Origin: Lachnospiraceae bacterium
GTDB taxonomy: Bacteria > Bacillota > Clostridia > Lachnospirales > Lachnospiraceae
Direction of reading: 5' to 3'
Length of the DNA: 64,000 nucleotides
Assembly: GCA_017472605.1 (NCBI GenBank)
Contig: JAFUPV010000048.1
Location: forward strand, 56,185 to 120,184
The position numbers and the translations under genes are program-made. Under the pieces are notes generated by a model. That model ran no database searches. It saw nothing but the letters and a program-made list of their open reading frames with translations, and was not told the origin of the DNA. This document shows, one piece after another, positions 44,858 through 62,407 of this stretch. Position 1 is the stretch's first letter; every line of letters begins with the position of its first letter.

Positions 44858-45835
44858 GATTTTATGCTTTTCATTTCGAGCCACCACTGCAATCTGATAG
44901 TTGTCGCAGATGAAATCAGACACCATTTACAGTTTCAATGCCTTTCATCTCAGGCTACCACTGCAACTATGTTAAACGTTAATTTTATGTCCAAGTCCGC
45001 AACTGTTTCAATGCCTTTCATCTCAGGCTACCACTGCAACTGAAAAAAATGGGCGACAATGCGGGCGAATTAATCAGTTTCAATGCCTTTCATCTCAGGC
45101 TACCACTGCAACAAAAATACGAAAAAGGTAGTTATGGCTACCGTAGTGTTTCAATGCCTTTCATCTCAGGCTACCACTGCAACTGGAAAATGAATTCGGT
45201 TTGCATCTTTAAATGCATAGTTTCAATGCCTTTCATCTCAGGCTACCACTGCAACAGTATATTGAAACGGCAGATCCCAAAGAAGCAAAGTGGTTTCAAT
45301 GCCTTTCATCTCAGGCTACCACTGCAACCGGGGGTAATGGCAACCAATGTCAGTCAAGTCAAACTGTTTCAATGCCTTTCATCTCAGGCTACCACTGCAA
45401 CAGCAGCAACTCGGAGACGCAGCATGACTGTGTATAGTGGTTTCAATGCCTTTCATCTCAGGCTACCACTGCAACGATGTAATTATAATCAATTCTTTAG
45501 ATTAAGTCAATGTTTCAATGCCTTTCATCTCAGGCTACCACTGCAACATGGAAAAAGACTTCAAAAAAGAATTTGCAAACATCAGTTTCAATGCCTTTCA
45601 TCTCAGGCTACCACTGCAACAGAAGAAGCTTGTAAAGTTGTGGAAGATCAGCACGGTTTCAATGCCTTTCATCTCAGGCTACCACTGCAACGAAGAACTG
45701 GATGGATTTTCCGCACAGCGTGGGAAGCGTTTCAATGCCTTTCATCTCAGGCTACCACTGCAACAGAGTATATGAGAATGCTTATATACAAGAATCTATG
45801 TTTCAATGCCTTTCATCTCAGGCTACCACTGCAAC
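44858..45835 (-). CRISPR. CRISPR array 1 (14 repeats, 13 spacers)
   Basis: Thirteen near-identical 36-bp repeats begin at 44932, 45005, 45077, 45148, 45220, 45293, 45366, 45440, 45512, 45585, 45656, 45729 and 45800. A degenerate copy at 44858-44893 marks the trailing end. On the plus strand the repeat begins GTTTCAATGCC and ends CCACTGCAAC. Spacers are 35-38 bp and all differ. The transcribed strand is the minus strand: the repeat then ends ATTGAAAC, the well-known type III crRNA 5' handle. The degenerate repeat is far from, and the leader (45836-46196) next to, the newest spacer. The repeat can form a small GCCT/AGGC hairpin for processing. No cas6 is in the window. Confidence 0.98.
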
Positions 45836-46196
45836 AGTCCCTCTCTGAACCCCTTATTTTACAAGGCTTTCAGAGGTCATTTTTGCGGTGGATTTATTTT
45901 GGGTCCACTTTTGTGTTTCAAAAGCTTCTGTTGCAGGAAAAATCGCAACTGTACCTTCTCAAAAACCTTGATTTTACAAGGTTTTTGAGAAATTACGCTG
46001 GATTCCTCGGAATTCAGCTCTCAAAACAAATTGTCAGACGCAAAAAACATCGTATTTTCAATGCTTTCTGGGCTTTCATCATTAAGTTGTTTGTGCTGCA
46101 GTGTAAGTTTAGCGCAATAACTGACAATTCAAATTCGTCATCGGCTAATCTAAGTATAACACAGTCTTCTGTTCCATTCAACTACTTTTTCTTCCG
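45836..46196 (-). promoter_or_regulatory. Leader of CRISPR array 1
   Basis: These 361 bases lie between the stop codon of the RT-primase gene and the first repeat. They contain a promoter (46153-46181) and two related inverted repeats. One is CTCTGAAAGCCTT/AAGGGGTTCAGAG, about eight bases from the array. The other is CTCAAAAACCTTG/CAAGGTTTTTGAG, about 120 bases upstream of the array. Both share the loop GTAAAAT. These are candidate sites for Cas1-Cas2 docking or for a host factor. Confidence 0.75.
46153..46181 (-). promoter_or_regulatory. Promoter of CRISPR array 1
   Basis: The minus strand reads TTGAAT, 17 bases, TATACT. It begins 16 bases after the stop codon of the RT-primase gene, so the array need not depend on the operon transcript. 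Confidence 0.7.
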
Positions 46197-48617
46197 TTAA
46201 ACCAATCGAATGTAAATTCCGCTCTCATCAAAAATGAATTCTTTCTGTATGTTCTCCTCCTTCTTCTCTCCATCCTTGATCAACAATTCCAGCTCGTGGC
46301 GGCATGTTTCAATATCCTGTTCCAGTTTTCGTTTCTGCTCGCCTAATTCGGTCAGAATTGTCTTCAACTCGTCAATTCGATTCGGTTGTAAACATTCCTG
46401 CAGATGTTTCTTACATTCTGCATTATTAACATAATCAGGTTTTGTCACTTCTTCCGGATTTTTCCGAATCGCATGGATTACAGGAGACGGATAGTAAAGA
46501 GGATACTCCCTAAATTCACATTTTGTACAGGGCAGCTCCGGAAACCGTTTGGTAAGTTTTTCGCAGCTGACCGGGAACTCCCGAATCCGATCCAGATATT
46601 TCTGTGTAATTTCCTGACTATAGTTAATCGTTTCCCTCATCAATTGATGTAAACAGGAATGTCCGCTCGGACCTAAATGACCATATACATATAAGAGTGC
46701 ATTTCTTTCATAATGTGTCAGATAATGGATTCTTTTTGCTTTATCTGACAATGCACGTACTACCGCACATCCTTGATATACAGAATCCGTAAGTTCACGA
46801 CTATCTACTCTCCCACCTTTTCCTGGTTCCTTCTCCTCATCAATCTGCACCTTGTCATAATCCGCTTTCGTTCCCCAAAGTGCGCCCAGCAACTCGTTCC
46901 GATTCATCTGAATTGCTTTCATAAACCGAATCTGATCAACGGTATCTTCCTCTAATGTAATGAATTGTGCCCGCCTCCGACTGTGCATGTGAATTGACAA
47001 CGGAAGTTTGATCAGTTCCTCTCCTGAAAAAGGGATTCTTTCCAGATGACATCCAGATGGAAGATTCAGCTTCTGAAGCACAGGATCAGCCGCATTCCAG
47101 AACTTTTCCACGGAAATCCGTTCTTCCCAAAACAGCCATACATGAAACCCTTTATAGCCGCTGTCTTCCACATAAGATACGATTTTCGCATCCTGAAACA
47201 ATTTCTGCAAGGTGAAAGCCACGGTACGTAAGCGCAGCTTTAATTGCTGAATTGCCTGATAATCTTCTCCATGTTCCAGGAGTAAACGTTTATCAATATC
47301 CAAATCAATCACATACAAATCGCTTTCTCCCTTCCTGCATGGATTGATTGCCAGACATAATCCATCCTCAAGCAAAGACCTGCATCTGGATTTGTCAAGC
47401 AATTCTTCATATTCATGAATTCCATATGCATCTATCGTTCCATGATACAATTGATATTCTTCTTTCAGAAACAATCTTCGGTACTCCTCACAAATATCGT
47501 TTTCCGTAGTCTCTCCTTCTGATTCACGCAAACTCTCAGGAAAAGAATCCAGCAGTAAATACAAGCCGTTCCGAAGCATATATTCCGTCAATTGATTTTC
47601 CGTTTCGTTCCTTACCTTTCCGTTCGACAAAATCTTCAATAATTCTGTCTTGTGCCTGTCCTTTGCAGAGCAATTTAGATAGTTAAAATACTCTGTTTTC
47701 CATTCCTGCACATTCTTCCATTGCCCTGTCCCTTCGCAGCCCTTTTTTTTCTCATACCCGCTGGTATAAACTTTCACATTTCGATCCTTTTCGGCGCAGG
47801 ATTCCCGTACAGAATTTCGAAAGACATGACCGAGAAATGTGAAGGATTGTTTTTCATCAATCGGTTTCGATTTTTGTTGATTAATAGACACTCCAACCAT
47901 CTCAAATTGACGATTTATCCACTCAAATTGTTCCGACGAAAGCGGTGTTTTCTCCAGAAAAATCATATCATCGGAATAACGGGCATAACCGGAAAACGCG
48001 GTTTCCAGATGCCGATCGGTTTCATACAAATACAGGTTACTCAATCCAGGCGACAGCGGACTTCCAAGAATCAATCCTTCCCCCGGCTCAATTCTTCCAT
48101 TGCGGTATACCGAAATCCGAATAAACTGCTCCATCAGTTCAAGAATTTTTCGATCCGTTATGTACGCAGATAACGTTTTCACCATTCGTTCGCGGTTAAT
48201 CGACGGAAAAAACGATCCAATATCACACCGATACCCATAGGGACACTCCGGTAACAGACTCTGAATGTAATCAATCGCCTGAAAAATTGACCTTCCTTCC
48301 AGATAGCCATAATTATGCGCAATCGAACAGGATGCTGTCAGCATGCGCAAATAATCAGCCAGACAATTTGCCACAATTTTGTCAGCGATCGTTACAAGTG
48401 CAATCTCTTTTTTCCCATGAATCATTTTTGCCGGCTGTACACGATAGATTCCATAATCTGCCTCAAATTGAATCCGTCTCAGGTTAGAAAGAAGATTTTG
48501 GTCAAATTCATGAATACTTTCCTGATCAATTCCAGGAGGCGTCCCATGGCGAACGACTGACTCCCACCCTTTTATCAGATTTTTTTCTGACAGCAACTCT
48601 TCATAACTCACCAACAT
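46197..48617 (-). CDS. Reverse transcriptase fused to an AEP primase-polymerase, CRISPR-associated
   Basis: This 806-residue two-enzyme protein combines an RT, which copies RNA to DNA, with a primase-polymerase. The RT spans residues about 10-280: VTIADKIVANCLADYLRML, first aspartate in YRCDIGSFFPSI (D132), GLILGSPLSPGLSNLYLY, and the catalytic YSDD at 214-217. The AEP primase spans about 400-600: DLDID metal site (438-442), SGYKGFHVW (486-494) and IKLPLSIH (536-543). A C-terminal cysteine cluster (C685, C697, C700, possibly C617 or C655) looks like a primase zinc or Fe-S site. I chose the ATG at 48617, with AGGAGGTG ten bases upstream. An IS110 element separates it from cas2. Both catalytic centres look intact. 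Role in spacer acquisition from RNA is inferred. Confidence 0.9.
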   Translation of the reverse strand: MLVSYEELLSEKNLIKGWESVVRHGTPPGIDQESIHEFDQNLLSNLRRIQFEADYGIYRVQPAKMIHGKKEIALVTIADKIVANCLADYLRMLTASCSIAHNYGYLEGRSIFQAIDYIQSLLPECPYGYRCDIGSFFPSINRERMVKTLSAYITDRKILELMEQFIRISVYRNGRIEPGEGLILGSPLSPGLSNLYLYETDRHLETAFSGYARYSDDMIFLEKTPLSSEQFEWINRQFEMVGVSINQQKSKPIDEKQSFTFLGHVFRNSVRESCAEKDRNVKVYTSGYEKKKGCEGTGQWKNVQEWKTEYFNYLNCSAKDRHKTELLKILSNGKVRNETENQLTEYMLRNGLYLLLDSFPESLRESEGETTENDICEEYRRLFLKEEYQLYHGTIDAYGIHEYEELLDKSRCRSLLEDGLCLAINPCRKGESDLYVIDLDIDKRLLLEHGEDYQAIQQLKLRLRTVAFTLQKLFQDAKIVSYVEDSGYKGFHVWLFWEERISVEKFWNAADPVLQKLNLPSGCHLERIPFSGEELIKLPLSIHMHSRRRAQFITLEEDTVDQIRFMKAIQMNRNELLGALWGTKADYDKVQIDEEKEPGKGGRVDSRELTDSVYQGCAVVRALSDKAKRIHYLTHYERNALLYVYGHLGPSGHSCLHQLMRETINYSQEITQKYLDRIREFPVSCEKLTKRFPELPCTKCEFREYPLYYPSPVIHAIRKNPEEVTKPDYVNNAECKKHLQECLQPNRIDELKTILTELGEQKRKLEQDIETCRHELELLIKDGEKKEENIQKEFIFDESGIYIRLV

Positions 48618-48689
48618 TTTCCACTTACACCTCCTCATATAATCAAGTCTTTTTTGTTGAAAAATCAAGGTTTTTGTACCCTGTATATC

Positions 48690-49090
48690 TCAGTGAATGA
48701 GCCTGTGTCATGGACTTTTCGGTGTATCAGGTACTGAAATAGCGGTTAAAAGGTATACGAAATAAAACGTCTTTGGTTTTCGCTTTACTGGCCTTGTGTA
48801 TACCCGTCCCTCTATGGCAGCTAACCTCCTATATCCACCAGGATCATCTCTGTCTCCAGAGGTCCTCACTTCCTTCGTCCTGCCTATCCATAACCAGGGT
48901 GTCAGCTTTGCTCCCTAACTGGGTCATGCCCTATGGAATAAATTCCTGTCGACTACCGGCTCATTCTTTGTTTTTTGATTACTGACCCGCTTCCTGTATC
49001 AGCACTGTTTCCAGTGGACGTTTTCTGCTACTTTCTGCGTTATACAGTGGCTACGCACTCCGTAGCCTCCTACATTGTTCCTGTGTCTGA
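48690..49090 (-). ncRNA. Candidate bridge/seek RNA region of the IS110 element
   Basis: About 400 bases downstream of the transposase stop codon have no credible gene. They contain a perfect hairpin GGCTACG-CACTC-CGTAGCC (about 49052-49070) and further purine-rich segments. IS110-family recombinases use a structured RNA from the non-coding end of the element to select target and donor DNA. The long 3' end makes this the likelier location here. The RNA's boundaries are not determined. Confidence 0.4.
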
Positions 49091-50380
49091 TTAAGCTGCC
49101 TGCAACATTCCCGGTCGTTTAATGTCCTCCAGCATCTTAGCCGGATTATAATCCACTCCCTTCGTAAGAATTGCATAAAACACTCTTATTGCCTTTGCTG
49201 CTACAGCCATCAGCGACTGCATCTTCTTTAATGGATTCTGCTTTCTGGTTGTATAATAATGGTGCAATTCACCAAACTCCGGATTCTTTCCCACAAGTGA
49301 CATCGCAACCTCGAATAACAAATATCTCAGCCTTTTTCTACCTCGTCTGCTGATTGTTGTCTCGCCCTTGTGTTTACCGGAACTATTCTCTACCAGTGCC
49401 AATCCTGCAAGCTTTTGCAGTTCTTTGGGATTGTCAAAGCGGCTGATATCGCCAACTTCGGCAAGGAATCCGGACACTGTCTTGATTCCTACTCCCTTGA
49501 TTTCCAACAGCTTTTCTGCCATCGGAATCTTCTTTACCAACTCTTCAATCAGAGTCATTACCTCCTGAAGACGGGCACTTCTGGACTCATAATCCTCTAT
49601 CAGCATTCTGATTTCCATTCGTGCTGATACCGCTCCTTCTTTGCTTCCAACGCTGTGCCCGGCAGCCTCCATCAGGGTCTTTGCCCTCTTAATTCCGACT
49701 GCTCTCAGTTTTGCATCACGCCAGATTTTATTGATACCATCGACACCCAACGTCAGAATGTCTTCCGGTAACGGAGCCTGCTTTAACACCATCATCCCGC
49801 TTATGGAATCCGTCTTTCCATACACCGTCTTGTATTCAGGAAAATATATACTGAACCAACGACTAATCCGGTTTTGAATCCTTGTCAGCTCCGACTGCAA
49901 CTGGAACCGCATGTTTGATGCCGTTCTCAAATCGGCATAAATCCCATCCGGCAGATACGGAATCATGTATCGTCCTTCTCTTACCAGACCTGCGATAACC
50001 TTCGGATCCTTACGGTCATTCTTTGTCGGATTGTTGTCATCGAGTTCTTTTGATTTCTTTACATGATGAGGATTTACCAGTACCGGCTTCATGTCATTAT
50101 CCTGCAAAAACTTCCCAAGATTAAACCAGTAGTGACCGGTTGGTTCCATTCCCGGAACAACCTTATCCTTCTCATGCATTTCCTTGATATCCGTTATCCA
50201 TGCTTTGAAGGCTGCGAAACCAGCCTCGTTGTTGCTGAACTTGAATGGCTTCTTTGAATACTCATACCCTCTGTGGTCAAATGCCCTTGCAAAGTGAGTC
50301 TCACTTCCCACATCGATACCGATTACCAAAGTTTTTTCTGTAATAGCTTCAATTTTTTTGTTTTGTGTGTTAGAATTCAT
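49091..50380 (-). CDS. IS110-family transposase (DEDD recombinase)
   Basis: This 429-residue recombinase moves the element with RNA guidance. The N-terminal RuvC-like DEDD domain shows IGIDVGSETHFARAFD (D), GMEPTGHYW (E) and KNDRKDPKVIAGL (D, D). The C-terminal Tnp20 domain includes the helix-hairpin-helix LLEIKGVGIKTVSGFLAEVG and SGKHKGETTISRRGRKRLRY with the conserved serine region. The full length suggests it is active. Its ribosome site GAGGT lies in the 3' arm of a large hairpin (50384-50455), so translation from incoming transcripts is probably blocked. Confidence 0.95.
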   Translation of the reverse strand: MNSNTQNKKIEAITEKTLVIGIDVGSETHFARAFDHRGYEYSKKPFKFSNNEAGFAAFKAWITDIKEMHEKDKVVPGMEPTGHYWFNLGKFLQDNDMKPVLVNPHHVKKSKELDDNNPTKNDRKDPKVIAGLVREGRYMIPYLPDGIYADLRTASNMRFQLQSELTRIQNRISRWFSIYFPEYKTVYGKTDSISGMMVLKQAPLPEDILTLGVDGINKIWRDAKLRAVGIKRAKTLMEAAGHSVGSKEGAVSARMEIRMLIEDYESRSARLQEVMTLIEELVKKIPMAEKLLEIKGVGIKTVSGFLAEVGDISRFDNPKELQKLAGLALVENSSGKHKGETTISRRGRKRLRYLLFEVAMSLVGKNPEFGELHHYYTTRKQNPLKKMQSLMAVAAKAIRVFYAILTKGVDYNPAKMLEDIKRPGMLQAA

Positions 50381-50383
50381 TTC

Positions 50384-50455
50384 AGATACCTCTTCTGTTC
50401 AATAAGATTTTTACTAACCGGCAAGTCAGTAGTCTTATTGTACTCTGAGGTATCT
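50384..50455 (-). promoter_or_regulatory. Hairpin sequestering the transposase ribosome binding site
   Basis: AGATACCTC and GAGGTATCT form the outer stem; AATAAGA and TCTTATT form an inner one around a TTACT/AGTA pairing. The 3' arm contains GAGGT, the transposase ribosome site. The complete structure would form only on transcripts entering from upstream, such as the cas operon. Confidence 0.65.
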
Positions 50456-50496
50456 TTCATTTTCAACTCTTACATTTTAATTATACAGGAAGCTCC

Positions 50497-50790
50497 CTAA
50501 ATCACATAATAGCTTTTTGATAAATCAATTTTTTTCCCGATTCGTTCTCTGCTCTGATAGCATCCACTGCAGTGCCGATACATCAGAATGCTGTCCGTCT
50601 GCTCATCCCACCCTGACAGTAACGTAACTTCGCCAATCCCTTTCCAGAATGCTTTCGCATTTGCTTCTGTCATATACCCTTCAAATACACTATACTGAAT
50701 CCGCTGCATGTAACTACTGCATACTTTCTCTGCTTTTCTTCGAACCTTATCGCTTGAAATATCATATACTACCGTGTACCAGGCTTTCAC
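50497..50790 (-). CDS. cas2: CRISPR-associated endoribonuclease Cas2
   Basis: This 97-residue structural partner of Cas1 forms the spacer-integration complex. It has the ferredoxin-like start WYTVVYDISSDKVRRKAEKV with the conserved aspartate, then MQRIQYSVFEGYMTEANAKA, and a C-terminal strand LSKSYYVI. Its start overlaps the cas1 stop codon by four bases (ATGA), so the two are translated together. It lies directly before the IS110 insertion. Confidence 0.95.
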   Translation of the reverse strand: MKAWYTVVYDISSDKVRRKAEKVCSSYMQRIQYSVFEGYMTEANAKAFWKGIGEVTLLSGWDEQTDSILMYRHCSGCYQSRERIGKKIDLSKSYYVI

Positions 50791-51752
50791 TCACAGTCCT
50801 CCTGTTTCTCTTCCATCATCCATTTCCTGATTTCAAGAATATTCTGCATAATTTTCTGGTTCCATGATTTTCCATCTTCAACCGTCTCATACATTTCCTG
50901 CTGAAACCAGATGCAAAATTGTTTCATCACATGTGGCAGTAGCCGCATTCCATCTTCATCCGTATAAAAATCATTTTTCTTAATCCGCTTCCGATTTAAA
51001 AGCATAATCACAAATCGGTCAGCAAAAATAGAGCGATATGGTTCCATAATATCCAATGCCAGGGATTCTCTTCCACTTCGGACCGTATGGTAAAAACCAA
51101 GTTGAACATCAAATGATAAACTGGTCAGGGCGGATACAATCTCATTTTTCAGAAATGTATATGTCAAATTCAGCAAGGCATTGACCGGATCAAATGCCGG
51201 TCTACGCTGTCGCTTTGTAAACTCATAGTCGGGAATCAGCAACTGAAAGCAGGAAAAATAGAGAGCAGCAGCTTTTCCTTCCAATCCAAGCAATTCACTG
51301 GATGCACATGCTGTCTGTACCTGTTCCTGCAAATGAAACAGTTGTATCTCTATCTCTTTCAGCTGCGAAATCTTTTTTCGATAGCGATAATTTTTTAACA
51401 CTTCACACTGATTCTGAATCTTCCGTGACACAATGTTCTTTGCAAAGGATAATCTGCTCGTTTCACAAAACCATTTATCATATTGAGCAATCCTCATCAG
51501 CACATGCTGTCCGATTCCGCTGCTTGCACGACCGCGGTATCTGCCGCCGGAAGATAAAAAAAGAATGTCAATCCCTTTGTCCAGAACCATCGCCAATGCC
51601 TGCGCTGTAATTTGTGTGTAGCCAAACAGAATAAGAGTTCGAACTTCATTCAGGCTAATATCCGCGACCTTTCCCTGGTTCTTTCTCACCGTCAGATAAT
51701 TTCCATTTTTATGAATTCTGCATTCAGCCTCACAAACATAGACATTTCTCAT
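50787..51752 (-). CDS. cas1: CRISPR-associated integrase Cas1
   Basis: This 321-residue metal-dependent integrase inserts new spacers at the leader end. The N-terminal beta domain (residues 1-80, including ILFGYTQITAQALAMVLDKG) is followed by the catalytic helical domain with E158 in LLGLEGKAA, H222 in GFYHTVRSGRES and D234 in LALDIMEPYR. It is a stand-alone Cas1 here, whereas many RT-linked systems fuse RT to Cas1. The ATG at 51752 has AAAGG nine bases upstream and overlaps the RNase HIII stop by four bases; the TTG at 51758 is an alternative. Confidence 0.97.
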   Translation of the reverse strand: MRNVYVCEAECRIHKNGNYLTVRKNQGKVADISLNEVRTLILFGYTQITAQALAMVLDKGIDILFLSSGGRYRGRASSGIGQHVLMRIAQYDKWFCETSRLSFAKNIVSRKIQNQCEVLKNYRYRKKISQLKEIEIQLFHLQEQVQTACASSELLGLEGKAAALYFSCFQLLIPDYEFTKRQRRPAFDPVNALLNLTYTFLKNEIVSALTSLSFDVQLGFYHTVRSGRESLALDIMEPYRSIFADRFVIMLLNRKRIKKNDFYTDEDGMRLLPHVMKQFCIWFQQEMYETVEDGKSWNQKIMQNILEIRKWMMEEKQEDCE

Positions 51753-52702
51753 CTGCAATACCTTTTCATGATTTCATTCGTCGTTCGAAAATGAATTTTC
51801 GCATATTCAGGCAACGCACTCCTGCCAACCTTGTCAAGAAGCAATTCAGCCTGATGTTTCACATCATTTCCACATCCCTTTGGAAGAATCATTCCCAACT
51901 GATCGGATGCCTGTTCCATCCACTTCAGATACTCATTTCGTGCCAGAATGCTTGCCGCTGCAACTGCCGCATATTTTTCTGCATGTGGTACAATTTTCAG
52001 CTTCGGAATCTGCGCATCTTCGTTTCCTCCATTGGTTTTCCCGCCTTCATAGAAGGCAATGCTCGCTCTGATTTTCTCTTCATCCGCAAACTGATCCGTA
52101 ATAATTAACGATAGTTCCGGCCGTTTCTGTAATGCCGCACAAATGATCTGGCCATGGGCAGTAGCCAGAATCTGATCCGAGCGTTTTCCTTCCACAAGAT
52201 AGGAAGAATACAGCTGATTATAGACCTTGGGTTCCAAACTGCAGATCACACAACAATCTTTATAATTCGTCAAAAGATACTCCGCATAGTTTCTGATTTC
52301 CTGATCCGCTATTTTCTTGCTGTCACGAATTCCTTCCTCCAAAAGGATCCTGTCTGTTTTCTCATCTGAAATGAAAGCTGCTGCTGCAAGCGGACCAAAG
52401 TAATCACCTTTTCCCGATTCATCGGTACCTACATACCATTCCTTAATTATATCGGATCCCATGATTAATTCAGTACAGATAGTGTTCAGCGGCCCGCTGA
52501 TGCTGGTTGTCTGGTCTGATATTACAAAGGAAAGTCCTTTCTTTGACTGATAGAAATTCACCTTCACCAGTTCATACCGATCACTTTCCAACAGATACTG
52601 ACTCCCATAAGGAAGCTTTCTTTCTCCAATCACGCGAATTCCTTCCCTCGCAACCCGCTGCAAAAAACTGCGTTTCGTTTCATCCAGCATTTTCTCAGTC
52701 AT
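51749..52702 (-). CDS. rnhC: Ribonuclease HIII in the adaptation operon
   Basis: This 317-residue enzyme cuts the RNA strand of RNA-DNA hybrids. The N-terminal TBP-like domain (residues about 1-85) marks type HIII. The catalytic domain shows VGTDESGKGDYFGPL with D94 and E95, GIRDSKKI, and D203 in ITDQFAD, so the key acidic residues are present. rnhC is normally a housekeeping gene away from cas genes. Here it is first in a translationally coupled rnhC-cas1-cas2 unit. With an RT-primase downstream, it probably removes the RNA template from cDNA before integration. That function is inferred. GGAGGG lies six bases before the start. Confidence 0.93.
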   Translation of the reverse strand: MTEKMLDETKRSFLQRVAREGIRVIGERKLPYGSQYLLESDRYELVKVNFYQSKKGLSFVISDQTTSISGPLNTICTELIMGSDIIKEWYVGTDESGKGDYFGPLAAAAFISDEKTDRILLEEGIRDSKKIADQEIRNYAEYLLTNYKDCCVICSLEPKVYNQLYSSYLVEGKRSDQILATAHGQIICAALQKRPELSLIITDQFADEEKIRASIAFYEGGKTNGGNEDAQIPKLKIVPHAEKYAAVAAASILARNEYLKWMEQASDQLGMILPKGCGNDVKHQAELLLDKVGRSALPEYAKIHFRTTNEIMKRYCR

Positions 52703-54968: not shown

Positions 54969-56984
54969 TTATCGGGATTTGATTATCTCTTTAATCTTTG
55001 GCAGTGCCGCTCTTCCACTTACACGATTCTGATACTCCTTCTTATCGATAGACATGTATCTGGTCTTCGATGCATCCGGTATTTTCTCACTGTTCTTCAT
55101 TAAAAAGAAATCCATGATTTCCGGAACCTGACTGATTGGTTTTCCAAGCCATTTGCTGATTTCCGTTTGATAGCTGGAAATGAACGGTTCCTTCTCCGCC
55201 TGCTCAAACGGATGAAATTCGAACGCTTCCATGTCATATGCTTTTGCTTCATTGAAAAGTTCCACTCCGGTTACCTGAATCTTCACTCTTCCATAGCCAT
55301 ATGCCTTTGCCTTACCGATATTCTGTTCCGATTCCTGATTCAGTTCCAGACTCCAGATCAGCAAACCCAGTTCATCTTTGGACAGATTTTTAAACACAAT
55401 TTTCCCCTGAAATACTGTTCCTGCTGGAAGCGGTCGGATCTGACTTCCAACCTTTTTCTCAGCCAGCTCCCCTGGACTGCAACCGCAATCTGCACGTTGT
55501 TTTAGCCAATACTGTTTTCTTCCACGCAGACGGAAGTTGTCATTGTATGTAGCAATCTTTGTTTTATCGGTTGCGTGTTCCAGGTAATCCAGATAACTGG
55601 TTGGCTTCGGCGAACCAAGAACCAGTGTCACCGGACTCATTTCCTTTTCTGCATTCGTGCAGGCATTCACGAACGAAAGTCTCGATTTGTAGCTCTGATT
55701 TTTCTCTGCAGTTCCAAACAATGCCTTGCAGTAATCAATCGCTGTTTCTTTCTGAACAAGTCCTTCTTTGATGGTTTTCTCATAGAACAGACGAAGTCTT
55801 GGGGTAAAGCCGAAATACAGTCTTCCATCCAGTTCAATGTAAAATACCGGTTTCACTTCCCCATTCTCTGGTAGTGCATAGAAGTCCGCATTTTTTCCAA
55901 GCTGATTCTTCTTTCCCTCAAAATCACGCTTATAGGCATCCACATCAGAAGGGCTGATTGGATAGAAGGAGGTCTCGTCCATAGACGGAATCAGATAAAT
56001 TGCTTTCTTTTCATTCATTGCTCCAGAGCTTAATAAATATCCATTTTGATACCCTTGTCTCTTATTACCCGGAGCCGCAATTGCCTGTACATTTTTCTCA
56101 TTGTGAATTTTGAAAGACACCTCACAATAGTACGGCTGATAGGATCCTCCCTGTCTTCCATTAAATGACCGTTTGTCTGTCGGTTTATAATGAACGCGTC
56201 CTCTATCCACCTCTCTGTTAAAAACAGCCCTCGGACTATAAAGTGTATCATGTCCAAATTCTCTTGAAAACAGATAAGAATACAATGATTTTTCCCTGTT
56301 TTTCCGATAATCCTCAATGATCGTTCGTTCACTTGCAACATAATAATTCATCTCACCAAGTGCTCCATTAATTTTCGAAAGCACCGTTCGATAAATCCGA
56401 TACTGGTTTCCTTCCTTTGTAATATATCCGGCTTTTACATTTTTCAAAACCGTTATATTTTTACCGGAAGGTGTTGGAACCGGTTTATTGCCAAGAATCG
56501 TTCCATACTTGTCCTTTTCCGCTCCATTCGCCACGTTTCGATACATTAGACGATAATCGTCAATATCGTCATGAACAGAGGAAAAGCCGAGAATCTGTGC
56601 ATTGCTTCGCACCAGCCCGCGAATTGAACTTCCCGGTATTGCGAAGTTTCCAGAAGAATCCCGGTAAAAAGAATCTGCCGCTTCATTCGTTTCCGATTTT
56701 TTTCCAGCTCCCACAAAGACAGGGGTTTTCGCTGTTATTTTATAATAAATCTGTCCGGAATACAAATCGGTTCGGATCTGATCATGGGATGGGCGTTCTT
56801 TTTTCTGCTGTGCATAATCAAACGTCTTTTCCGAAATTGGAACAAAATTGTACGGTGCTCCTAAATATCCGCCTTCATAATTCAGATTCAGTTTCCTGTT
56901 GTCTGTCTTCTCCCGACTCTGCCTTCCATCAAACCGATGATTCCTGTCTTTTGCATAGCCGTTTGAATGTCCATAATACCCCAT
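54969..56984 (-). CDS. RAMP-superfamily protein of type III-D systems (TIGR03986-like)
   Basis: This 671-residue crRNA-binding subunit has an N-terminal disordered, basic segment of about 75 residues. A Cas7-like RRM domain follows (YYKITAKTPVFVGAGKKSET, then IPGSSIRGLVRSNAQIL, the conserved loop after the first helix). A large insertion and a second half end with the glycine-rich loop NIGKAKAYGYGRVKIQV. This arrangement matches the TIGR03986 RAMP found in III-D loci. The start at 56984 has GGAGG six bases upstream; the GTG at 56990 is less likely. It lies 11 bases after csx19. Confidence 0.88.
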   Translation of the reverse strand: MGYYGHSNGYAKDRNHRFDGRQSREKTDNRKLNLNYEGGYLGAPYNFVPISEKTFDYAQQKKERPSHDQIRTDLYSGQIYYKITAKTPVFVGAGKKSETNEAADSFYRDSSGNFAIPGSSIRGLVRSNAQILGFSSVHDDIDDYRLMYRNVANGAEKDKYGTILGNKPVPTPSGKNITVLKNVKAGYITKEGNQYRIYRTVLSKINGALGEMNYYVASERTIIEDYRKNREKSLYSYLFSREFGHDTLYSPRAVFNREVDRGRVHYKPTDKRSFNGRQGGSYQPYYCEVSFKIHNEKNVQAIAAPGNKRQGYQNGYLLSSGAMNEKKAIYLIPSMDETSFYPISPSDVDAYKRDFEGKKNQLGKNADFYALPENGEVKPVFYIELDGRLYFGFTPRLRLFYEKTIKEGLVQKETAIDYCKALFGTAEKNQSYKSRLSFVNACTNAEKEMSPVTLVLGSPKPTSYLDYLEHATDKTKIATYNDNFRLRGRKQYWLKQRADCGCSPGELAEKKVGSQIRPLPAGTVFQGKIVFKNLSKDELGLLIWSLELNQESEQNIGKAKAYGYGRVKIQVTGVELFNEAKAYDMEAFEFHPFEQAEKEPFISSYQTEISKWLGKPISQVPEIMDFFLMKNSEKIPDASKTRYMSIDKKEYQNRVSGRAALPKIKEIIKSR

Positions 56985-56995
56985 ACACACCCTCC

Positions 56996-57382
56996 TTACT
57001 GCAATCCGACAAGCCTGGTCAGCGCGGTATATGCCTGACCATCCTCATCAAATCCAATGTACTCTTTTACCAGCAGCTCGCTCCATCCCAGTTTTCTATA
57101 CCTGTCTTCCAATTTTCTGCACCGGACAATCGACTCGCATTCCTGTTTTCCATCATCTGAAACAAGAACTGCCCGATACTCTCCATTGAATTCAAAGATA
57201 TGAAGTTCATGTTCCTGACTGAAGAAGCGTGCTTCGATACATTCTTCCCAGATGATCTGGTCACTCATCTGGTCAATTGAACCAAGAAGTACAGACTCCA
57301 GCTGATATACCAATGCATATTGAAATCCATTTATCTGTTTTTTCGCTTCCTCAATGGAAAGGAACTGTTTCTTATATGCCAT
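56996..57382 (-). CDS. csx19: Type III-D CRISPR-associated protein Csx19
   Basis: This 128-residue protein is specific to III-D loci, with an undefined role, possibly a small structural subunit. The pattern ECIEARFFSQEHELHIFEFN followed by GEYRAVLVSDDG and a C-terminal WSELLVKEYIGFDEDGQAYT is what I recall for Csx19/TIGR03984 proteins. I could not check by profile search. GAAAGGAG lies before the start, which overlaps the double-Cas7 gene by 11 bases, indicating coupled translation. Confidence 0.78.
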   Translation of the reverse strand: MAYKKQFLSIEEAKKQINGFQYALVYQLESVLLGSIDQMSDQIIWEECIEARFFSQEHELHIFEFNGEYRAVLVSDDGKQECESIVRCRKLEDRYRKLGWSELLVKEYIGFDEDGQAYTALTRLVGLQ

Positions 57383-58727
57383 CTCTTTGCTCCTTTCTGT
57401 TCTTCAATTCGTTCATGCAACGTCTCAATAATCCCGAATCATCATTTACTTTCTTTTCCTGGAAATCCAATTCACACAGATTTCCTGCCCGATCAACAAT
57501 CTCCAGCCTGTGAATTTTTACATAGCCTTTTCCCACACTGCAGCCACTTCCCAGCGTCATCTGTCTTTCTGCCATGTCACGGAAAACAAAAGCAAGCAAT
57601 GCGCAGGCTGCCGCTGAATGCTCTCCTTCCAGAACACCAGCGTGGAACATTACGGAACCGGAGACATTTTTCTCACTGAATAGAGCAGAATCCATCACAC
57701 CGCCGGTAAATTTATCCACATGGATTCTTCTTCTCAGTTCTGCCTGATCATTCGCCTCCTGATCGCCTACAATCACATCATAAAACCGAAGAATTCCCAT
57801 CTTCCCCTGCGCTGTTTCTGTCGCAGCCGCGCCAAAGACAGAATCAATGAATGATTCTTTGATATCAAGGTGGCTGCATATCATTTTCATCCTGCTCCGA
57901 ATTGCCCCTTTGACAGAACTTCCTGGAATGATGTAATCGTTATTTCCATTCTGAATATTCATTACATCCGGCGCATTCTTCCCGTAATCGGTTACTGCAA
58001 TTCCCTTTACCAGTAATTCACCGTCTGTTTCTCCATAAACATTCAAATCAAATGCACGGAATTTTAATGAAACTGGCAAACGATCCGGCAAAATGGGAAC
58101 GGCTTCGGAATCCATGCCTTCATCCTCACAGAACCAGGCTTCCCGGTCTTTGCTGTCGGTTAAACTATAATGTCTGTGAGCGATTGCTTTCATTGCAAAA
58201 TAACCGCATCCATTGCTCTTTTGTCCGCCAAACTGCACATATCCGGAATGGATGTCACCAAGACATGTCAGAAAGCGTTCTTTATCCTCCTTATTCCAAT
58301 CCAGCGCATAAACGGTAAACTTCATTTCGGCGCCGGCTGCAACATATTGTATCTCAAATTTCTGTCCAGACTGCTGTTCGCTGCCGACAGTTCCGGTTGC
58401 CGCATCGATGCGAATCCTGGGACGAAGCTCCATCTTTACCGTCTTCATGTCAAATCTTCCGTCGCTGAAGCGAATTCGGCTTTCTTCCTGCTGCTCACTT
58501 CCGGAACTGCCAAAGATTTTTGCTGCATATCCCTTTCCGTATGCATTTTCATAATAGCCGCGAAACGCTCCGGCGAGACTGGAAGCCTGCAAAAACGGTT
58601 CCTCTTCAACCGGATGGATCAAAACCTCTTCCACTCCTCCGTTCGCGCTTCCTGTGTGAAGAGGCTGAGTACATGTAACCTGAATCAGAAACTTATCAAT
58701 TTGACTATATCGTGCTTTCTGTGTCAT
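57372..58727 (-). CDS. Fused double Cas7 (Csm3-like) RAMP protein
   Basis: This 451-residue protein contains two consecutive Cas7-type domains, each expected to occupy one position in the backbone of the effector. Domain 1 (about 10-195) has HTGSANGGVEEVL, ASSLAGAFRGYYE and GYVQFGGQKSNGCGYF. Domain 2 (about 205-430) has DYIIPGSSVKGAIRSRM, HVDKFTGGVMDSALF and LGSGCSVGKGYVKI. In Csm3 an aspartate in the loop before PGSSLKG cuts target RNA. Domain 2 keeps a candidate (KNAPDVMN), whereas domain 1 has only glutamates there (VEEVLIHPVEEE). Cas7 fusions are known steps toward single-protein III-E effectors. It overlaps csx10 by four bases. Confidence 0.88.
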   Translation of the reverse strand: MTQKARYSQIDKFLIQVTCTQPLHTGSANGGVEEVLIHPVEEEPFLQASSLAGAFRGYYENAYGKGYAAKIFGSSGSEQQEESRIRFSDGRFDMKTVKMELRPRIRIDAATGTVGSEQQSGQKFEIQYVAAGAEMKFTVYALDWNKEDKERFLTCLGDIHSGYVQFGGQKSNGCGYFAMKAIAHRHYSLTDSKDREAWFCEDEGMDSEAVPILPDRLPVSLKFRAFDLNVYGETDGELLVKGIAVTDYGKNAPDVMNIQNGNNDYIIPGSSVKGAIRSRMKMICSHLDIKESFIDSVFGAAATETAQGKMGILRFYDVIVGDQEANDQAELRRRIHVDKFTGGVMDSALFSEKNVSGSVMFHAGVLEGEHSAAACALLAFVFRDMAERQMTLGSGCSVGKGYVKIHRLEIVDRAGNLCELDFQEKKVNDDSGLLRRCMNELKNRKEQRDGI

Positions 58728-60283
58728 TCCTCAATCCCCTTTCTGTTATCCAACTGAATCATGGAAATCAGCAGCTGAAGCTGAAATTTCATTTTTTCGT
58801 CCTCAGCAAGCAGCTGATTTACCGGAATTCCCATAACTTCCTGATTCTTCACATAAGATTCACCAATATAACGCTGCAGATATGGATTCAGCAGTGTTTC
58901 CGGCGCTGAATCAAGCACATTTCGGATAAATCCGGCAACCGATACACGTTTCAGCCGGTTCGTATGCTTTTTTGTTGTTTCGTCCTTTTCTACCGCATGA
59001 TCCAGATATGCCAGCAATTTTTCTTTTGCTTCCAGTGGCTGATACATCAATTTCTGTATGTAGGATCGAATTGTACCCAACTGACTCGATGGGAGTTTTT
59101 GTCCGGGGAATGTGTTTTCCACAAGATACTGCATTTTTGCCTGTTCCAGACAGTCTTTATAATAGCCTTTCGCCGCAATTCTTAATACCTGTTTTTCTTC
59201 TTCTGTTAATTCCGAATTCACAGAATCAACGGTTTTCTTAAAATCTGCTTTCTGTTTATATTGAATCTGTTCATAGCGATCCAGAATCAATACATTACCA
59301 AATCCCTCATTTCTGCGAACCCCAATTCCGTCACGGCACAATGCATCTATTTTCTCTTTTTTCAGCGTTCCCCTGAATTCCAGTTTGAAAACGCTTCCCA
59401 TCTCATACATAGGAACACATGGTGTTTTTGAATTCCAGATGCGATTGTATCCTCGAACCAGAACCGTCGAAGTGGAACAGAAAGCGATTTTCAAATCTTC
59501 TACACCAAGCTTTTTCTCCAATGCTTTTACGTCAATGCCGGTATATTCTCCTTCTTCCGAGCGCATTGCCGTATTTGAAGCCAGGTATAAATATACATGT
59601 CCCAACCGATCTCCATCTGGTAGGTATTTCCCATAGGGAATTTCATCGGTCAATTCCATTTTTACAATCTGGCATTCTCCATAGCCTGATGTACGGCTGT
59701 TTCCAAGATACCACTTTTTATCTTCAAAAATAGTACAAATCGATCTCAGCAGATTTTCATCCCTGACTTCAATGTAACCGCAAAACAGCTGTCCGGGCAC
59801 GAGATAACTGCTTCGGAACATGTTCTTTTTTTCATTCTCCTGATATCCAATGTTTATCCGGAGATCGCTTCCTAATTCCGGACTCATGTAAAACAGAACA
59901 TTATCACTCAGGCAGCAATTTTTTCCAATTCCAGCCCGCTTATTTCCCGGAGTTATTTCTCCGTCTGCGACTACATTCTCAATTTGTTTTTTTCCTTCGG
60001 TTATCTCTTTGCTTTCATAAAACCCTTTTAATGAGGGAATCATTTCTTCCTCGCGATCTTCTATATGAATTACCGGATATGCATTGAGATACCGAACCTG
60101 ATCGGAAAATAACCCGGTTTTCAGTTTATCGAACTGCGGTGTCAGCGCAAGTCTGTTAATGACGACTCCGCGAACTGTACTTCCCGGTATATAGGACAGC
60201 GTCTCTGACTGTTCATTCTGACTGCTGCTGTCATCTGTAATCCGGATCTTACTCACATTCTTTAACAAATAACGAATATACAT
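58724..60283 (-). CDS. csx10: Type III-D RAMP protein Csx10
   Basis: This 519-residue Cas5-like subunit is the signature of subtype III-D and probably holds the crRNA 5' handle. It has the RAMP loop SYIPGSTVRGVVINRLAL near the N-terminus and a second glycine-rich loop, YLGNSRTSGYGECQIVKM. The C-terminal half contains IGVRRNEGFGNVLILDRY, then a helical tail of about 170 residues (GYYKDCLEQAKMQYLVEN onward). Its start has AAGG upstream, 19 bases after the preceding cas7, and its stop overlaps the next gene. Confidence 0.85.
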   Translation of the reverse strand: MYIRYLLKNVSKIRITDDSSSQNEQSETLSYIPGSTVRGVVINRLALTPQFDKLKTGLFSDQVRYLNAYPVIHIEDREEEMIPSLKGFYESKEITEGKKQIENVVADGEITPGNKRAGIGKNCCLSDNVLFYMSPELGSDLRINIGYQENEKKNMFRSSYLVPGQLFCGYIEVRDENLLRSICTIFEDKKWYLGNSRTSGYGECQIVKMELTDEIPYGKYLPDGDRLGHVYLYLASNTAMRSEEGEYTGIDVKALEKKLGVEDLKIAFCSTSTVLVRGYNRIWNSKTPCVPMYEMGSVFKLEFRGTLKKEKIDALCRDGIGVRRNEGFGNVLILDRYEQIQYKQKADFKKTVDSVNSELTEEEKQVLRIAAKGYYKDCLEQAKMQYLVENTFPGQKLPSSQLGTIRSYIQKLMYQPLEAKEKLLAYLDHAVEKDETTKKHTNRLKRVSVAGFIRNVLDSAPETLLNPYLQRYIGESYVKNQEVMGIPVNQLLAEDEKMKFQLQLLISMIQLDNRKGIEE

Positions 60284-60302
60284 TCCGTTGTTACCCTTCC
60301 TT

Positions 60303-60869
60303 TCAAACCCGTTCCAATTTTACTTTTCCAAACCCTCTGTTCCTCATTGTGCCAACCCACTTTATGCAGGAAAGGATTTCCTCAACCATTGCCTCGTCGT
60401 CCGCCATGCAATTGATTTCTCCGTAGAAGATTAGACCGTTTTTCAGGCATCTCACATTTCTCAACGAACCTTTTTTTACCATTCCTTCCTCATCAAGTGC
60501 GGTAAAGGCACGAAGATAGGAAAATGCATGCTGTATCTGCTCCGGATTGTTTTTCATTTGTTGGTTCACAATTGCCTTTACTTTATCCGAAAGTGAAAAG
60601 TCCCGAAAACGAATTTTCTGTACTTCATTCAGATTACTGTCTCCGCTTTTTCCTAACCGGGTATTGATCCATGACGCGATCTCGCTTTCACTCTTTCCTT
60701 TCCAGTTCATCAGATTCTCCGCTTCCTCGCGAAAAACTCCCTTCAGTGAAGATGCCTTATAGTAGGGGAATCCTTCTTCATCTGTAATTACCGAAATATC
60801 TTCTCCGCCAGGGACACTGATTCCACTTCCAAACACAGCATCCGACAGTAATGTCATTTTGATTTTCAC
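60303..60869 (-). CDS. Cas7-like RAMP protein (Csm3 type, short)
   Basis: This 188-residue backbone subunit of the effector has a single Cas7 domain. It starts KIKMTLLSDAVFGSGISVPG with the charged loop GGEDISVITDEEG, which offers the candidate catalytic aspartate, then ASSLKGVFREEAENL and the ending GTMRNRGFGKVKLERV. I chose the GTG at 60869, because GGAGG lies seven bases upstream and the protein then begins at the first strand, as Csm3 proteins do. The ATG at 60890 overlaps the cas10 stop but has no usable ribosome site. Confidence 0.88.
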   Translation of the reverse strand: MKIKMTLLSDAVFGSGISVPGGEDISVITDEEGFPYYKASSLKGVFREEAENLMNWKGKSESEIASWINTRLGKSGDSNLNEVQKIRFRDFSLSDKVKAIVNQQMKNNPEQIQHAFSYLRAFTALDEEGMVKKGSLRNVRCLKNGLIFYGEINCMADDEAMVEEILSCIKWVGTMRNRGFGKVKLERV

Positions 60870-60886
60870 CTTGACTCCTCCTTCTC

Positions 60887-62407
60887 TCATCCTTCTACCA
60901 AAAGATATGTATCCATAATCTCAATTGCATCAAACAGCAATGCCCGTTTCTTTCCATCCGCTGTTTGTTCAAATACATTTCGCTCTGTTCGTTTTCCCTT
61001 TTTCACATTCTCGATGTCTGTTTCTGTTATGTCTTCCATTCTCGTATCCAGTACAAGGTCTTCCATTCGATTCACCTGCAAATAGTATTTCGATGCCTCC
61101 TCACCATTTCGCAGCTGAGCACGCATTTCTTTCAGTTTGCCTCTCGCATAATCCATCTCGTCACCTGTCAGCTTTAAAATCTGCTTTTTCAGATTCGCAT
61201 AGGTTCTGACCGGCTCGTTCATGTAATTCCTGGGATCAAGCACGATGTATGGGCGAAGCTCCAGATGGTTTCCATCCGAGGTTTTATACATTTCCCGAAT
61301 TTCTTCCAGGCTGTCTTTCATTTCTCCATATTCAATATGCCAGTCAATGGTACATACATTTCCGCTTGCTTCCGTTTTGTCTTGCGTCTGCGCATAGGTG
61401 GCAATGTAACGCTTCGCATTGCTGCACAAGTCTTCCGCCAGCTCGTAGGCACGATAAAAGGGATATTTCTGATGAACGATTGCCACACCTGCACATGCTG
61501 CATAGCCTTTATGATCTACATGGTTTACTCGTTCTGCCAGCTTTTTCAAAAACAAAACCGCACATTCAAGTCCAATTCTTCCTTCTGTGATGAAACAGAT
61601 GTCATCTCCTGCGGTAATTACGCGTCTGACCGGGAAAGCGTACTCTAACAGACTCATCTGTTCCAGTTTACCCGCAATCAATTGCTCCGCAACAATTTTT
61701 GTCATTTCGCGATAAGCCGCTTTAAAATCCTGATCAATTGCGTCACTGAACTCTCTCAAGACAAGCCGAAGTTCTTCCCAATCTTTTCCTTCCATTGCTC
61801 TTCGAAGCTCTTCTACCCGCTTTCCCATGTTGTTTCCGTCAATATGAATGATTGCTACAAAATTGGATTCGCCTTTTGTTCCACCAAGTTTCTCAAGCTG
61901 ATTCATCTGCTCGAACCCGTCAGGTGTCAGCTCCTGATCCAACCGAACATCCATCTCTGGCCTTTTCCAACTGTATTCCTGCACTGTTTTTTCTACGCCA
62001 AAACTTCTCTGGTGAAATGCAGATGCCCGCTTTGCTTTTTTCTCTTCAAGGGCTTTTGACAGCAGTTCCAAATCCCGACTTGTTATGTTATCCTCACACG
62101 GAAGTATTTTCGCAAACAGCTCCAGTCCTTCATAGCTCTTTCGAACTTCCAACGTCACTTTACTGATAAATTCTTTTGCAGTTTCCAAAGAATCAAATAC
62201 TAAAACGGTATGACCGCCTCCAGCATATACCAGATTTTTCTCTTCCGAATAAATCGCCGGATCACCTGTAATTGTCTCAAAAAAAACAGAACTTGTTACC
62301 CAGGCAATAATCGCAGAATTAATCACATTTTCTTTTAATTTGTTGCTGAAAAAAATGAATACCTGCTTTTGTGACACTTCCAGGATCGCTAAATATTTTT
62401 GATTCAT
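60887..62407 (-). CDS. cas10: Cas10 (Csm1-like) without HD domain
   Basis: This 506-residue large subunit of the type III effector is first in the operon. There is no N-terminal HD nuclease domain: the protein begins directly with the first palm, whose degenerate motif is YAGGGHTVLVF (61-71). A second palm follows with IIHIDGNNMGKRV (D190) and ITAGDDICFI, where the cyclase GGDD motif reads AGDD (266-269). Both aspartates remain, so cyclic oligoadenylate synthesis is still possible. The zinc-finger region is minimal. The C-terminal 120 residues are helical (Cas11-like D4). GGAAGGAG precedes the start. Target DNA cleavage by HD is not expected. Confidence 0.93.
   Translation of the reverse strand: MNQKYLAILEVSQKQVFIFFSNKLKENVINSAIIAWVTSSVFFETITGDPAIYSEEKNLVYAGGGHTVLVFDSLETAKEFISKVTLEVRKSYEGLELFAKILPCEDNITSRDLELLSKALEEKKAKRASAFHQRSFGVEKTVQEYSWKRPEMDVRLDQELTPDGFEQMNQLEKLGGTKGESNFVAIIHIDGNNMGKRVEELRRAMEGKDWEELRLVLREFSDAIDQDFKAAYREMTKIVAEQLIAGKLEQMSLLEYAFPVRRVITAGDDICFITEGRIGLECAVLFLKKLAERVNHVDHKGYAACAGVAIVHQKYPFYRAYELAEDLCSNAKRYIATYAQTQDKTEASGNVCTIDWHIEYGEMKDSLEEIREMYKTSDGNHLELRPYIVLDPRNYMNEPVRTYANLKKQILKLTGDEMDYARGKLKEMRAQLRNGEEASKYYLQVNRMEDLVLDTRMEDITETDIENVKKGKRTERNVFEQTADGKKRALLFDAIEIMDTYLLVEG

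What the first reader, a model, noticed from the sequence alone, without database searches (positions are those of the whole stretch)
46197..52702. RNase HIII, Cas1, Cas2 and an RT-primase fusion in one CRISPR adaptation module
Seen: rnhC, cas1 and cas2 overlap by four bases at each junction, and an 806-residue RT plus AEP-primase protein follows on the same strand, ending at the array 1 leader. Active-site motifs look intact in RNase HIII (D94, E95, D203), Cas1 (E158, H222, D234), RT (YSDD) and primase (DLDID). Established: RTs linked to type III loci can take spacers from RNA, and primase-polymerases linked to CRISPR loci are known. Inference: the module contains all steps of RNA-to-spacer conversion, namely primer synthesis, cDNA synthesis, RNA removal by RNase H, and integration. 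A dedicated RNase H in this pathway would be new to me.
Basis: partly seen in the sequence, partly recalled or inferred. Interest (0 to 1): 0.92.

Follow-up and report, generated by a model that had tools for sequence, protein, structure and literature searches.

The report
CRISPR spacer-acquisition cassette with dedicated RNase H
In two different bacteria, the gene set that writes new CRISPR memories sits together with a reverse transcriptase-primase and an RNase H enzyme of a type otherwise rare in their kin, which suggests a built-in tool for turning RNA into DNA memories.

Summary
rnhC, cas1 and cas2 overlap by 4 bp at both junctions, an RT-AEP fusion follows on the same strand, and the named motifs are intact. 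The RT-primase fusion is already known (CART-CAPP). The new part is the RNase HIII-type gene. It is the only RNase HIII found in this genome, which has an RNase HII elsewhere. RNase HIII is rare in this family (2 of 397 genomes at the threshold used, this one included). The same four-gene cassette, without the IS, is in Candidatus Fimimorpha faecalis (47-58% identical proteins), again as its only RNase HIII found. The two form one long-stemmed clade (100/100). In Fimimorpha the cassette is on a different contig from the collinear III-D effector genes, which ties RNase HIII to adaptation. It was not detected at the 13 other loci of the same scan (several cut by contig ends). Best reading: a dedicated RNase H that removes RNA from RNA/cDNA hybrids during spacer acquisition; ribonucleotide-primer removal is the main rival. 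No activity is shown. A 2023 survey already mentions, in one sentence, adaptation modules linked with 'RNaseH', so this is a new variant, not a new kind.

The parts
51749..52702 (-). RNase HIII-type gene (317 aa), first gene of the cassette
   Evidence: PF01351 94.9 bits; TIGR00716 127.1 bits (below its 161.2 cut-off); no PADLOC match; D94/E95/D203/E242 present
50787..51752 (-). cas1 (321 aa), 4-bp overlap with rnhC; the only Cas1 found in the genome
   Evidence: PF01867 271 bits; E158/H222/D234
50497..50790 (-). cas2 (97 aa, GTG start), 4-bp overlap with cas1
   Evidence: PF09827 63 bits
49091..50380 (-). IS110-family transposase inserted between cas2 and the RT gene; not in the Fimimorpha cassette
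   Evidence: NF033542 239 bits; in Fimimorpha cas2 and the RT gene are 19 bp apart
46197..48617 (-). RT + AEP primase-polymerase + C-terminal domain (806 aa; CART-CAPP type)
   Evidence: RVT_1 and AEP-TOTE; NCBIfam PrimPol_Msp 148.5 bits, under its cut-off of 200; PADLOC RT 160.6 bits and 'adaptation polymerase' PrimPol 114.2 bits; YSDD, DLDID, SGYKGFH, KLPLSIH
44932..45835 (-). CRISPR array 1: 13 repeats of 36 bp, 12 spacers of 35-38 bp
45836..46196 (-). putative leader of array 1, between the newest repeat and the RT-primase stop
   Evidence: orientation inferred from repeat end ATTGAAAC on the - strand (handle rule recalled)
60887..62407 (-). Cas10 of type III-D (506 aa; palm domain matched, no HD family matched)
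   Evidence: PADLOC Cas10d 376.6 bits; Pfam palm2
54969..60890 (-). type III-D effector genes: Cas7-like 195 aa, Csx10-like 519 aa, Cas7 451 aa, Csx19 128 aa, Cas7 673 aa
   Evidence: NCBIfam and PADLOC matches, several below NCBIfam cut-offs; collinear 45-61% identical set in Fimimorpha
62932..64000 (-). CRISPR array 2: 15 repeats seen, runs to the end of the contig
   Evidence: window ends where contig C20 ends

Best explanation
This is a CART-CAPP type CRISPR adaptation cassette serving a type III-D system, with a dedicated RNase HIII-type enzyme that was most simply recruited once in the ancestor of this cassette lineage. Most likely work-flow: Cas1-Cas2 with the RT-primase capture RNA (or ssDNA) fragments. 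The RT domain starts and extends a DNA copy. The RNase HIII cuts the RNA strand of the resulting RNA/cDNA hybrid (before or after half-integration), so that the DNA copy can be made double-stranded (by RT, primase domain or host polymerase) and fixed in the array. Shown here: gene order, motifs, recurrence in a second organism, rarity of RNase HIII in the family, separate clade, location with adaptation rather than effector genes. Inferred: every biochemical step.
For: The same rnhC-cas1-cas2-RT-CAPP order is in Candidatus Fimimorpha faecalis (L129). Whole-length identities are RNase HIII 54%, Cas1 58%, RT-CAPP 47%; tblastn gives Cas2 57%. The two hosts are well apart: their RNase HIIs are 61% identical. 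This genome and the Fimimorpha genome each gave two RNase HII/HIII matches, one RNase HII and one RNase HIII, the HIII being the cassette copy (HII by tree). RNase HIII is otherwise rare nearby: with the rnhC model the best of 60 other relatives scored 34.1 bits against 124.5; 1 of 396 other family genomes (not CRISPR-linked in 19 kb); none of 144 other relatives of Fimimorpha. The two cassette HIIIs form a 100/100 clade on a stem of 1.95 and 1.76; their Cas1 and RT-CAPP proteins pair likewise (99/99 and 100/100). In Fimimorpha the cassette is on contig C132 and the collinear III-D effector on C122. Catalytic residues of HIII, Cas1, RT and PP are kept in both. A CART-CAPP RT domain primes and copies RNA in vitro, and an RT-Cas1 complex integrates cDNA made from RNA (PMC10415136, passages). 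RNase HIII is described as similar to RNase HI, while cutting at single ribonucleotides is ascribed to RNase HII (PMC11352351, passages).
Against: Only two genomes carry the linkage in all I searched, both draft assemblies, and they may represent one evolutionary event: cassette divergence (47-58%) is about that of a housekeeping gene of the two hosts (61%). 13 of 14 loci from the genome scan gave no hit to this RNase HIII, so it does not look needed for CART-CAPP adaptation in general; several of these contigs end close to the cas genes, so some absences are weak. For Marinomonas RT-Cas1, direct integration of dN-tailed RNA is reported, and the authors argue that an RNase H plus second-strand route does not fit their tails, while not fully excluding it (PMC11014452). 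The IS110 insertion separates the RT gene from the rnhC-cas1-cas2 block here. No spacer source was found, so RNA origin is untested. A host RNase HI was not searched for. The protein scores below the NCBIfam rnhC cut-off.
Confidence: 0.55

Rival explanations
1. Primer removal: the RT-primase starts prespacer strands with ribonucleotides, and the RNase H trims these 5' RNA ends so that Cas1-Cas2 receives all-DNA ends. The source could then be DNA only.
For: CAPPs need a 5' ribonucleotide (GTP preferred) to start primers (PMC8211822, passages). The primase motifs DxD, SG..GxH and (L/I)PxxxH are intact here and in Fimimorpha. RNase HIII acts on Okazaki RNA in B. subtilis (PMC11352351, passages).
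Against: A single 5' ribonucleotide is what RNase HII, already present in both hosts, is described as cutting. [quoted passage not shown] CAPP loci of the scan other than Fimimorpha's gave no hit to this RNase H.
Confidence: 0.2
2. The RNase HIII acts in interference or signalling (for example on R-loops or target RNA at the type III effector), and its place beside cas1 is only convenient.
For: In the window the effector operon lies just upstream on the same strand.
Against: In Fimimorpha the gene is with cas1-cas2-RT on one contig while the effector set is on another. In both genomes it is the first gene of the adaptation block and overlaps cas1.
Confidence: 0.1
3. Housekeeping or passenger gene: the host's only rnhC happens to sit next to cas1.
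For: It is the only RNase HIII found in the genome.
Against: The family mostly lacks rnhC; same linkage in a second organism; separate long-stemmed clade; 33 other RNase HIII loci checked gave no cas1 hit within about 1.2-1.5 kb on either side (29 of the 35 other places; 1; 3).
Confidence: 0.04
4. Cleaning of the array: RNase HIII removes RNA left in the array after direct integration of RNA or RNA/cDNA, during repair of the new repeat-spacer unit.
For: Direct integration of RNA and RNA/cDNA duplexes is reported for RT-Cas1 (PMC11014452).
Against: Nothing here separates this from removal before integration; host repair could do it.
Confidence: 0.11

Closest known systems
CART-CAPP (RT type of CAPP_A), Caloramator australicus CCJ33120 and Geobacillus lituanicus (PMC8211822, PMC10415136)
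   Same: N-terminal RT fused to AEP primase-polymerase and C-terminal domain, next to cas1-cas2 of type III systems
   Different: The word RNase does not occur in the main text of either paper. The window's pair is a divergent branch with a long stem.
[quoted passage not shown]
   Same: An RNase H gene linked to a CRISPR adaptation module; the legend of the figure cited there also lists RVT, AEP and PrimPol
   Different: One sentence and a legend seen; RNase H class, partners and host cannot be told from the text, so identity with this cassette is open.
RT-Cas1 / Cas6-RT-Cas1 of Marinomonas mediterranea (PMC11014452, PMC10415136)
   Same: RT-dependent acquisition from RNA with Cas1-Cas2
   Different: RT fused to Cas1 rather than to a primase; in the passages seen, neither paper describes a dedicated RNase H.
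RNase HIII (rnhC) of Bacillota
   Same: Catalytic residues D, E, D, E and aligned N-terminal region
   Different: Cassette lineage is a separate clade; scores below the NCBIfam equivalog cut-off; sits in a CRISPR cassette.
Type III-D CRISPR-Cas
   Same: Cas10d, Csx10-like, Csx19, multi-domain Cas7 genes
   Different: Adaptation cassette carries RT-primase and RNase HIII.

Membership tests
CART-CAPP | RT domain fused N-terminally to an AEP primase-polymerase domain | tested here: met
   RVT_1 at 89-282 and AEP-TOTE at 438-590 of one ORF; PrimPol_Msp at 453-791
CART-CAPP | linked to cas1 and cas2 of a type III system | tested here: met
   also in Fimimorpha, where the effector is on another contig
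CART-CAPP | intact RT and primase motifs | tested here: met
   YSDD, DLDID, SGYKGFH, KLPLSIH aligned with 8 other RT-CAPPs
CART-CAPP | de novo priming and cDNA synthesis | not testable with these tools
   needs biochemistry
NCBIfam NF040561 (CRISPR-associated primase-polymerase type A1 equivalog) | score over the curated cut-off 200 | tested here: not met
   148.5 bits; related, but not filed as type A1
RNase HIII | RNase HII/HIII catalytic domain with D-E-D-E residues | tested here: met
   PF01351 94.9 bits over cut-off 25.8; D94, E95, D203, E242
RNase HIII | N-terminal substrate-binding domain | tested here: inconclusive
RNase HIII | closer to RNase HIII than to RNase HII | tested here: met
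   split from the HII rows at 100/99; best PDB hit is RNase HIII 3asm
RNase HIII (NCBIfam TIGR00716 equivalog) | score over the curated cut-off 161.2 | tested here: not met
   127.1 bits; so I call it RNase HIII-type, not the housekeeping equivalog
Type III-D | Cas10d with Csx10/Csx19 and multi-domain Cas7 genes | tested here: met
RNA-spacer acquiring system | spacers acquired from RNA in an RT-dependent way | not testable with these tools
   no convincing protospacer in the phage collection, none for 4 of 26 spacers in viral contigs
UAS-3/UAS-45 (PMC10910872) | same genes as in that report | not testable with these tools
   figure and data files not held; text alone seen

The most novel reading that the evidence does not exclude
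A self-contained RNA-to-dsDNA spacer factory that resembles retroviral strand replacement: RT makes the first strand, a dedicated RNase HIII removes the RNA, the primase domain (with intact motifs here) primes or makes the second strand, and Cas1-Cas2 inserts dsDNA. The host family mostly lacks RNase HIII, so the cassette brings its own.
Probability: 0.3. Interest if true: 0.82.

Novelty: new variant of a known kind. Interest (0 to 1): 0.62.

Why it matters
How RNA becomes an integrated DNA spacer is unsettled. The passages that I saw differ on whether RNA goes in directly or as a DNA copy, and an RNase H step has been discussed without a dedicated enzyme. A cassette that carries its own RNase H gives a natural, minimal set (four genes) in which the fate of the RNA strand can be tested by deleting one gene or changing one active site. 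It could also supply a compact RNA-recording tool.

Tried and rejected
Housekeeping rnhC: rejected. General CART-CAPP partner: not supported, 13 of 14 loci of the scan gave no hit. Cas1 hits were seen in 11 of the 14; in L130 and L138 the contig ends inside cas1, and L132, L140 and L141 gave no cas1 hit. Pfam scans of 10 proteins near such loci gave Cas6, Csm6/CARF-type and Uma2 families but no RNase H (10 proteins chosen by me, not all neighbours).

Plasmid origin of RT-CAPP: no match at E 1e-20 in 72,556 plasmid records. Viral contigs: no relative of the RNase HIII pair or of the primase part.

Spacer sources: no convincing match in phages for either array (best E 0.3 and 0.09), nor exact matches of four spacer cores of 24-25 nt in viral contigs (4 of 26 spacers tried).

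Rfam over 42000-64000 at gathering scores: nothing. Promoter and terminator scan: 19 and 8 found against 14.4 and 5.1 in shuffles, so how the RT gene is expressed past the IS is open.

Structure prediction: not available.

Tree rows: one search used 6 of 7 intended RNase HII rows (one was not picked up). One search left out 6 rows (L074, L080, L085, L087, L090, L147) because of long branches or over-long open frames; both trees give the same clade. L129's RNase HIII was flagged for unusual letter make-up in both trees.

An earlier count said 30 phylum loci; the right number is 29.
Full report
Observation. The window holds, on the - strand, rnhC (51749-52702), cas1 (50787-51752), cas2 (50497-50790) and an RT + AEP primase fusion (46197-48617, 806 aa), with 4-bp overlaps at rnhC/cas1 and cas1/cas2. 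The stretch is single-copy in this draft assembly, so its mobility cannot be judged from copy number. Upstream lies a type III-D effector set with Cas10d, Csx10-like, Csx19 and Cas7 genes. Arrays of 13 and at least 15 repeats flank the locus. One Cas1 was found in the genome, which is 95% complete in 75 contigs.

What the RT-primase is. It is a CART-CAPP: an RT fused to a CRISPR-associated primase-polymerase. CAPP-RT proteins were described in PMC8211822 and characterised in PMC10415136 (both seen as passages). There the RT domain primes and copies DNA and RNA, the primase domain was inactive in two tested fusions, and the authors say it is unclear why it is kept. In nine RT-CAPPs aligned here, the window's included, the motifs DxD, SG..GxH and (L/I)PxxxH are kept in all nine, so these motifs alone do not explain that inactivity. 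In a search of 299 genomes of the phylum, only two besides this genome matched over the primase part; the other matches were to the RT part (E 1e-10, at most 3 candidates scored per genome). In 391 genomes of the class, the one match of comparable strength was G768 (162.6 bits; the next other genome 92.7).

Is rnhC really linked? In this genome it is the only RNase HIII found; a separate RNase HII is on contig C14. With the NCBIfam rnhC model, 36 of 60 other relatives gave weak matches, the best 34.1 bits against 124.5 for the window's gene, and none, the window's included, passed the cut-off (the model passes its cut-off in 2 of 14 control genomes). In 397 genomes of the family only the window's genome and one other match at E 1e-12 with the two-row model; the other copy has no hit to Cas1, Cas2 or the RT-primase in 19 kb. 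In 285 genomes of the order there are three others, none with a cas1 hit within 1.5 kb. In 398 genomes of the phylum, 34 others hold a match at 35 places; 29 of these were fetched and none has a cas1 hit within the 1.2-1.5 kb held on either side.

The second case. One scan of a collection of 84,980 species genomes with the primase and C-terminal part gave 14 loci. 11 of these give a cas1 hit, two of them cut by the contig end, and one, L129 (Candidatus Fimimorpha faecalis), carries rnhC-cas1-cas2-RT-CAPP in the same order and on one strand, with no IS. Whole-protein identities are RNase HIII 54%, Cas1 58%, RT-CAPP 47% and Cas2 57% by tblastn. rnhC runs 23 bp into cas1, and cas2 and the RT gene are 19 bp apart. 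The Fimimorpha genome also gave one RNase HII and one RNase HIII, the latter in the cassette, and 144 further relatives of it gave none. It has a III-D effector set collinear with six of the window's genes (45-61% identity) on another contig, with Cas6 and a weak CARF match nearby. No clear CRISPR array was found on the 11-kb cassette contig or in 19.9 kb of the effector contig, where one 49-nt repeat occurs twice. So rnhC goes with the adaptation genes, not with the effector genes; since both are draft contigs, I cannot say how far apart they lie.

Lineage. With 30 other RNase HIII rows and 6 RNase HII rows, the two cassette RNase HIIIs form a 100/100 clade on a stem of 1.95 changes per site. 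With six problem rows left out and the three from the order added, the result holds (100/100, stem 1.76). Cas1 and RT-CAPP of the two cassettes also pair (99/99 among 12 rows, 100/100 among 9 rows), as expected for one recruitment followed by joint descent. That is also a limit: the two cases may be one event, kept over a divergence similar to that of a host gene. The donor of the RNase HIII is not resolved.

Mechanism. The best-supported reading is that RNase HIII removes RNA from hybrids made by the RT during spacer acquisition. In its favour: the function of the family (RNase HIII described as similar to RNase HI, RNase HII as cutting at single ribonucleotides; PMC11352351, passages), the gene order, and the lack of another RNase HIII in both hosts. 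In PMC10415136 the DNA strand of a heteroduplex is integrated by the Marinomonas complex but RNA very inefficiently, which leaves a use for RNA removal. Against: PMC11014452 reports direct integration of dN-tailed RNA and argues that an RNase H and second-strand route does not fit its data, without excluding it. The chief rival is removal of the ribonucleotide with which CAPPs start primers (PMC8211822). Host RNase HI was not tested. No activity is shown.

Prior art. [quoted passage not shown] I cannot tell from the text whether either is this cassette. My library searches (listings) brought up no paper on RNase HIII with cas1 that I could recognise as such; the two that hold RNase HIII or ribonuclease HIII together with CRISPR terms, PMC4398514 and PMC2743648, do not concern such a link in the passages seen. 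The 2025 classification PMC12669027 has one RNase H passage, on DUF3800 in class 2 systems, and no mention of RNaseH or RNase HIII in its main text. Most subscription papers are not in that library.

Verdict. Real, present in two organisms, not a housekeeping gene of the family, and a new variant of a known kind of module. The dedicated RNase HIII is the point of interest. The claim that all steps of RNA-to-spacer conversion are encoded remains an inference, with the primase step the weakest.

Noticed in passing
window 48618-50496 (-): IS110-family element between cas2 and the RT gene, with 473 bp between the transposase stop and the RT start codon; a possible bridge-RNA region was not examined beyond an Rfam scan without hits.
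   Followed up: partly
G000:C69:83012-84277 (L159) and L161:8962-10593: A second Cas10d-like gene in both genomes, beside an FtsK/FHA protein in one and a protein kinase/Sel1 protein plus a RAMP-like gene in the other; no repeat like the window's was found there. May be a Cas10-derived signalling system.
   Followed up: partly
L126:7721-9625 (-) and L127:8218-9819 (+): RT proteins beside cas1 that match the CAPP C-terminal domain but give no match to the primase catalytic part: RT-CAPPs that seem to have lost the primase domain.
   Followed up: partly
L133:8311-11161 (Acetivibrio alkalicellulosi): RT-CAPP gene split into two reading frames.
   Followed up: no
window 52905-54176 and 54219-54890 (-): Two proteins (423 and 223 aa) between the effector genes and rnhC with no Pfam or PADLOC match and no match in the Fimimorpha loci held; the first has hydrophobic stretches near its start.
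   Followed up: partly
window 62932-64000: Array 2 runs off the contig end; its repeat differs from array 1 at one position (CCAATGCAAC against CCACTGCAAC). No cas6 was matched among the window proteins scanned, while Fimimorpha has one next to cas10.
   Followed up: no
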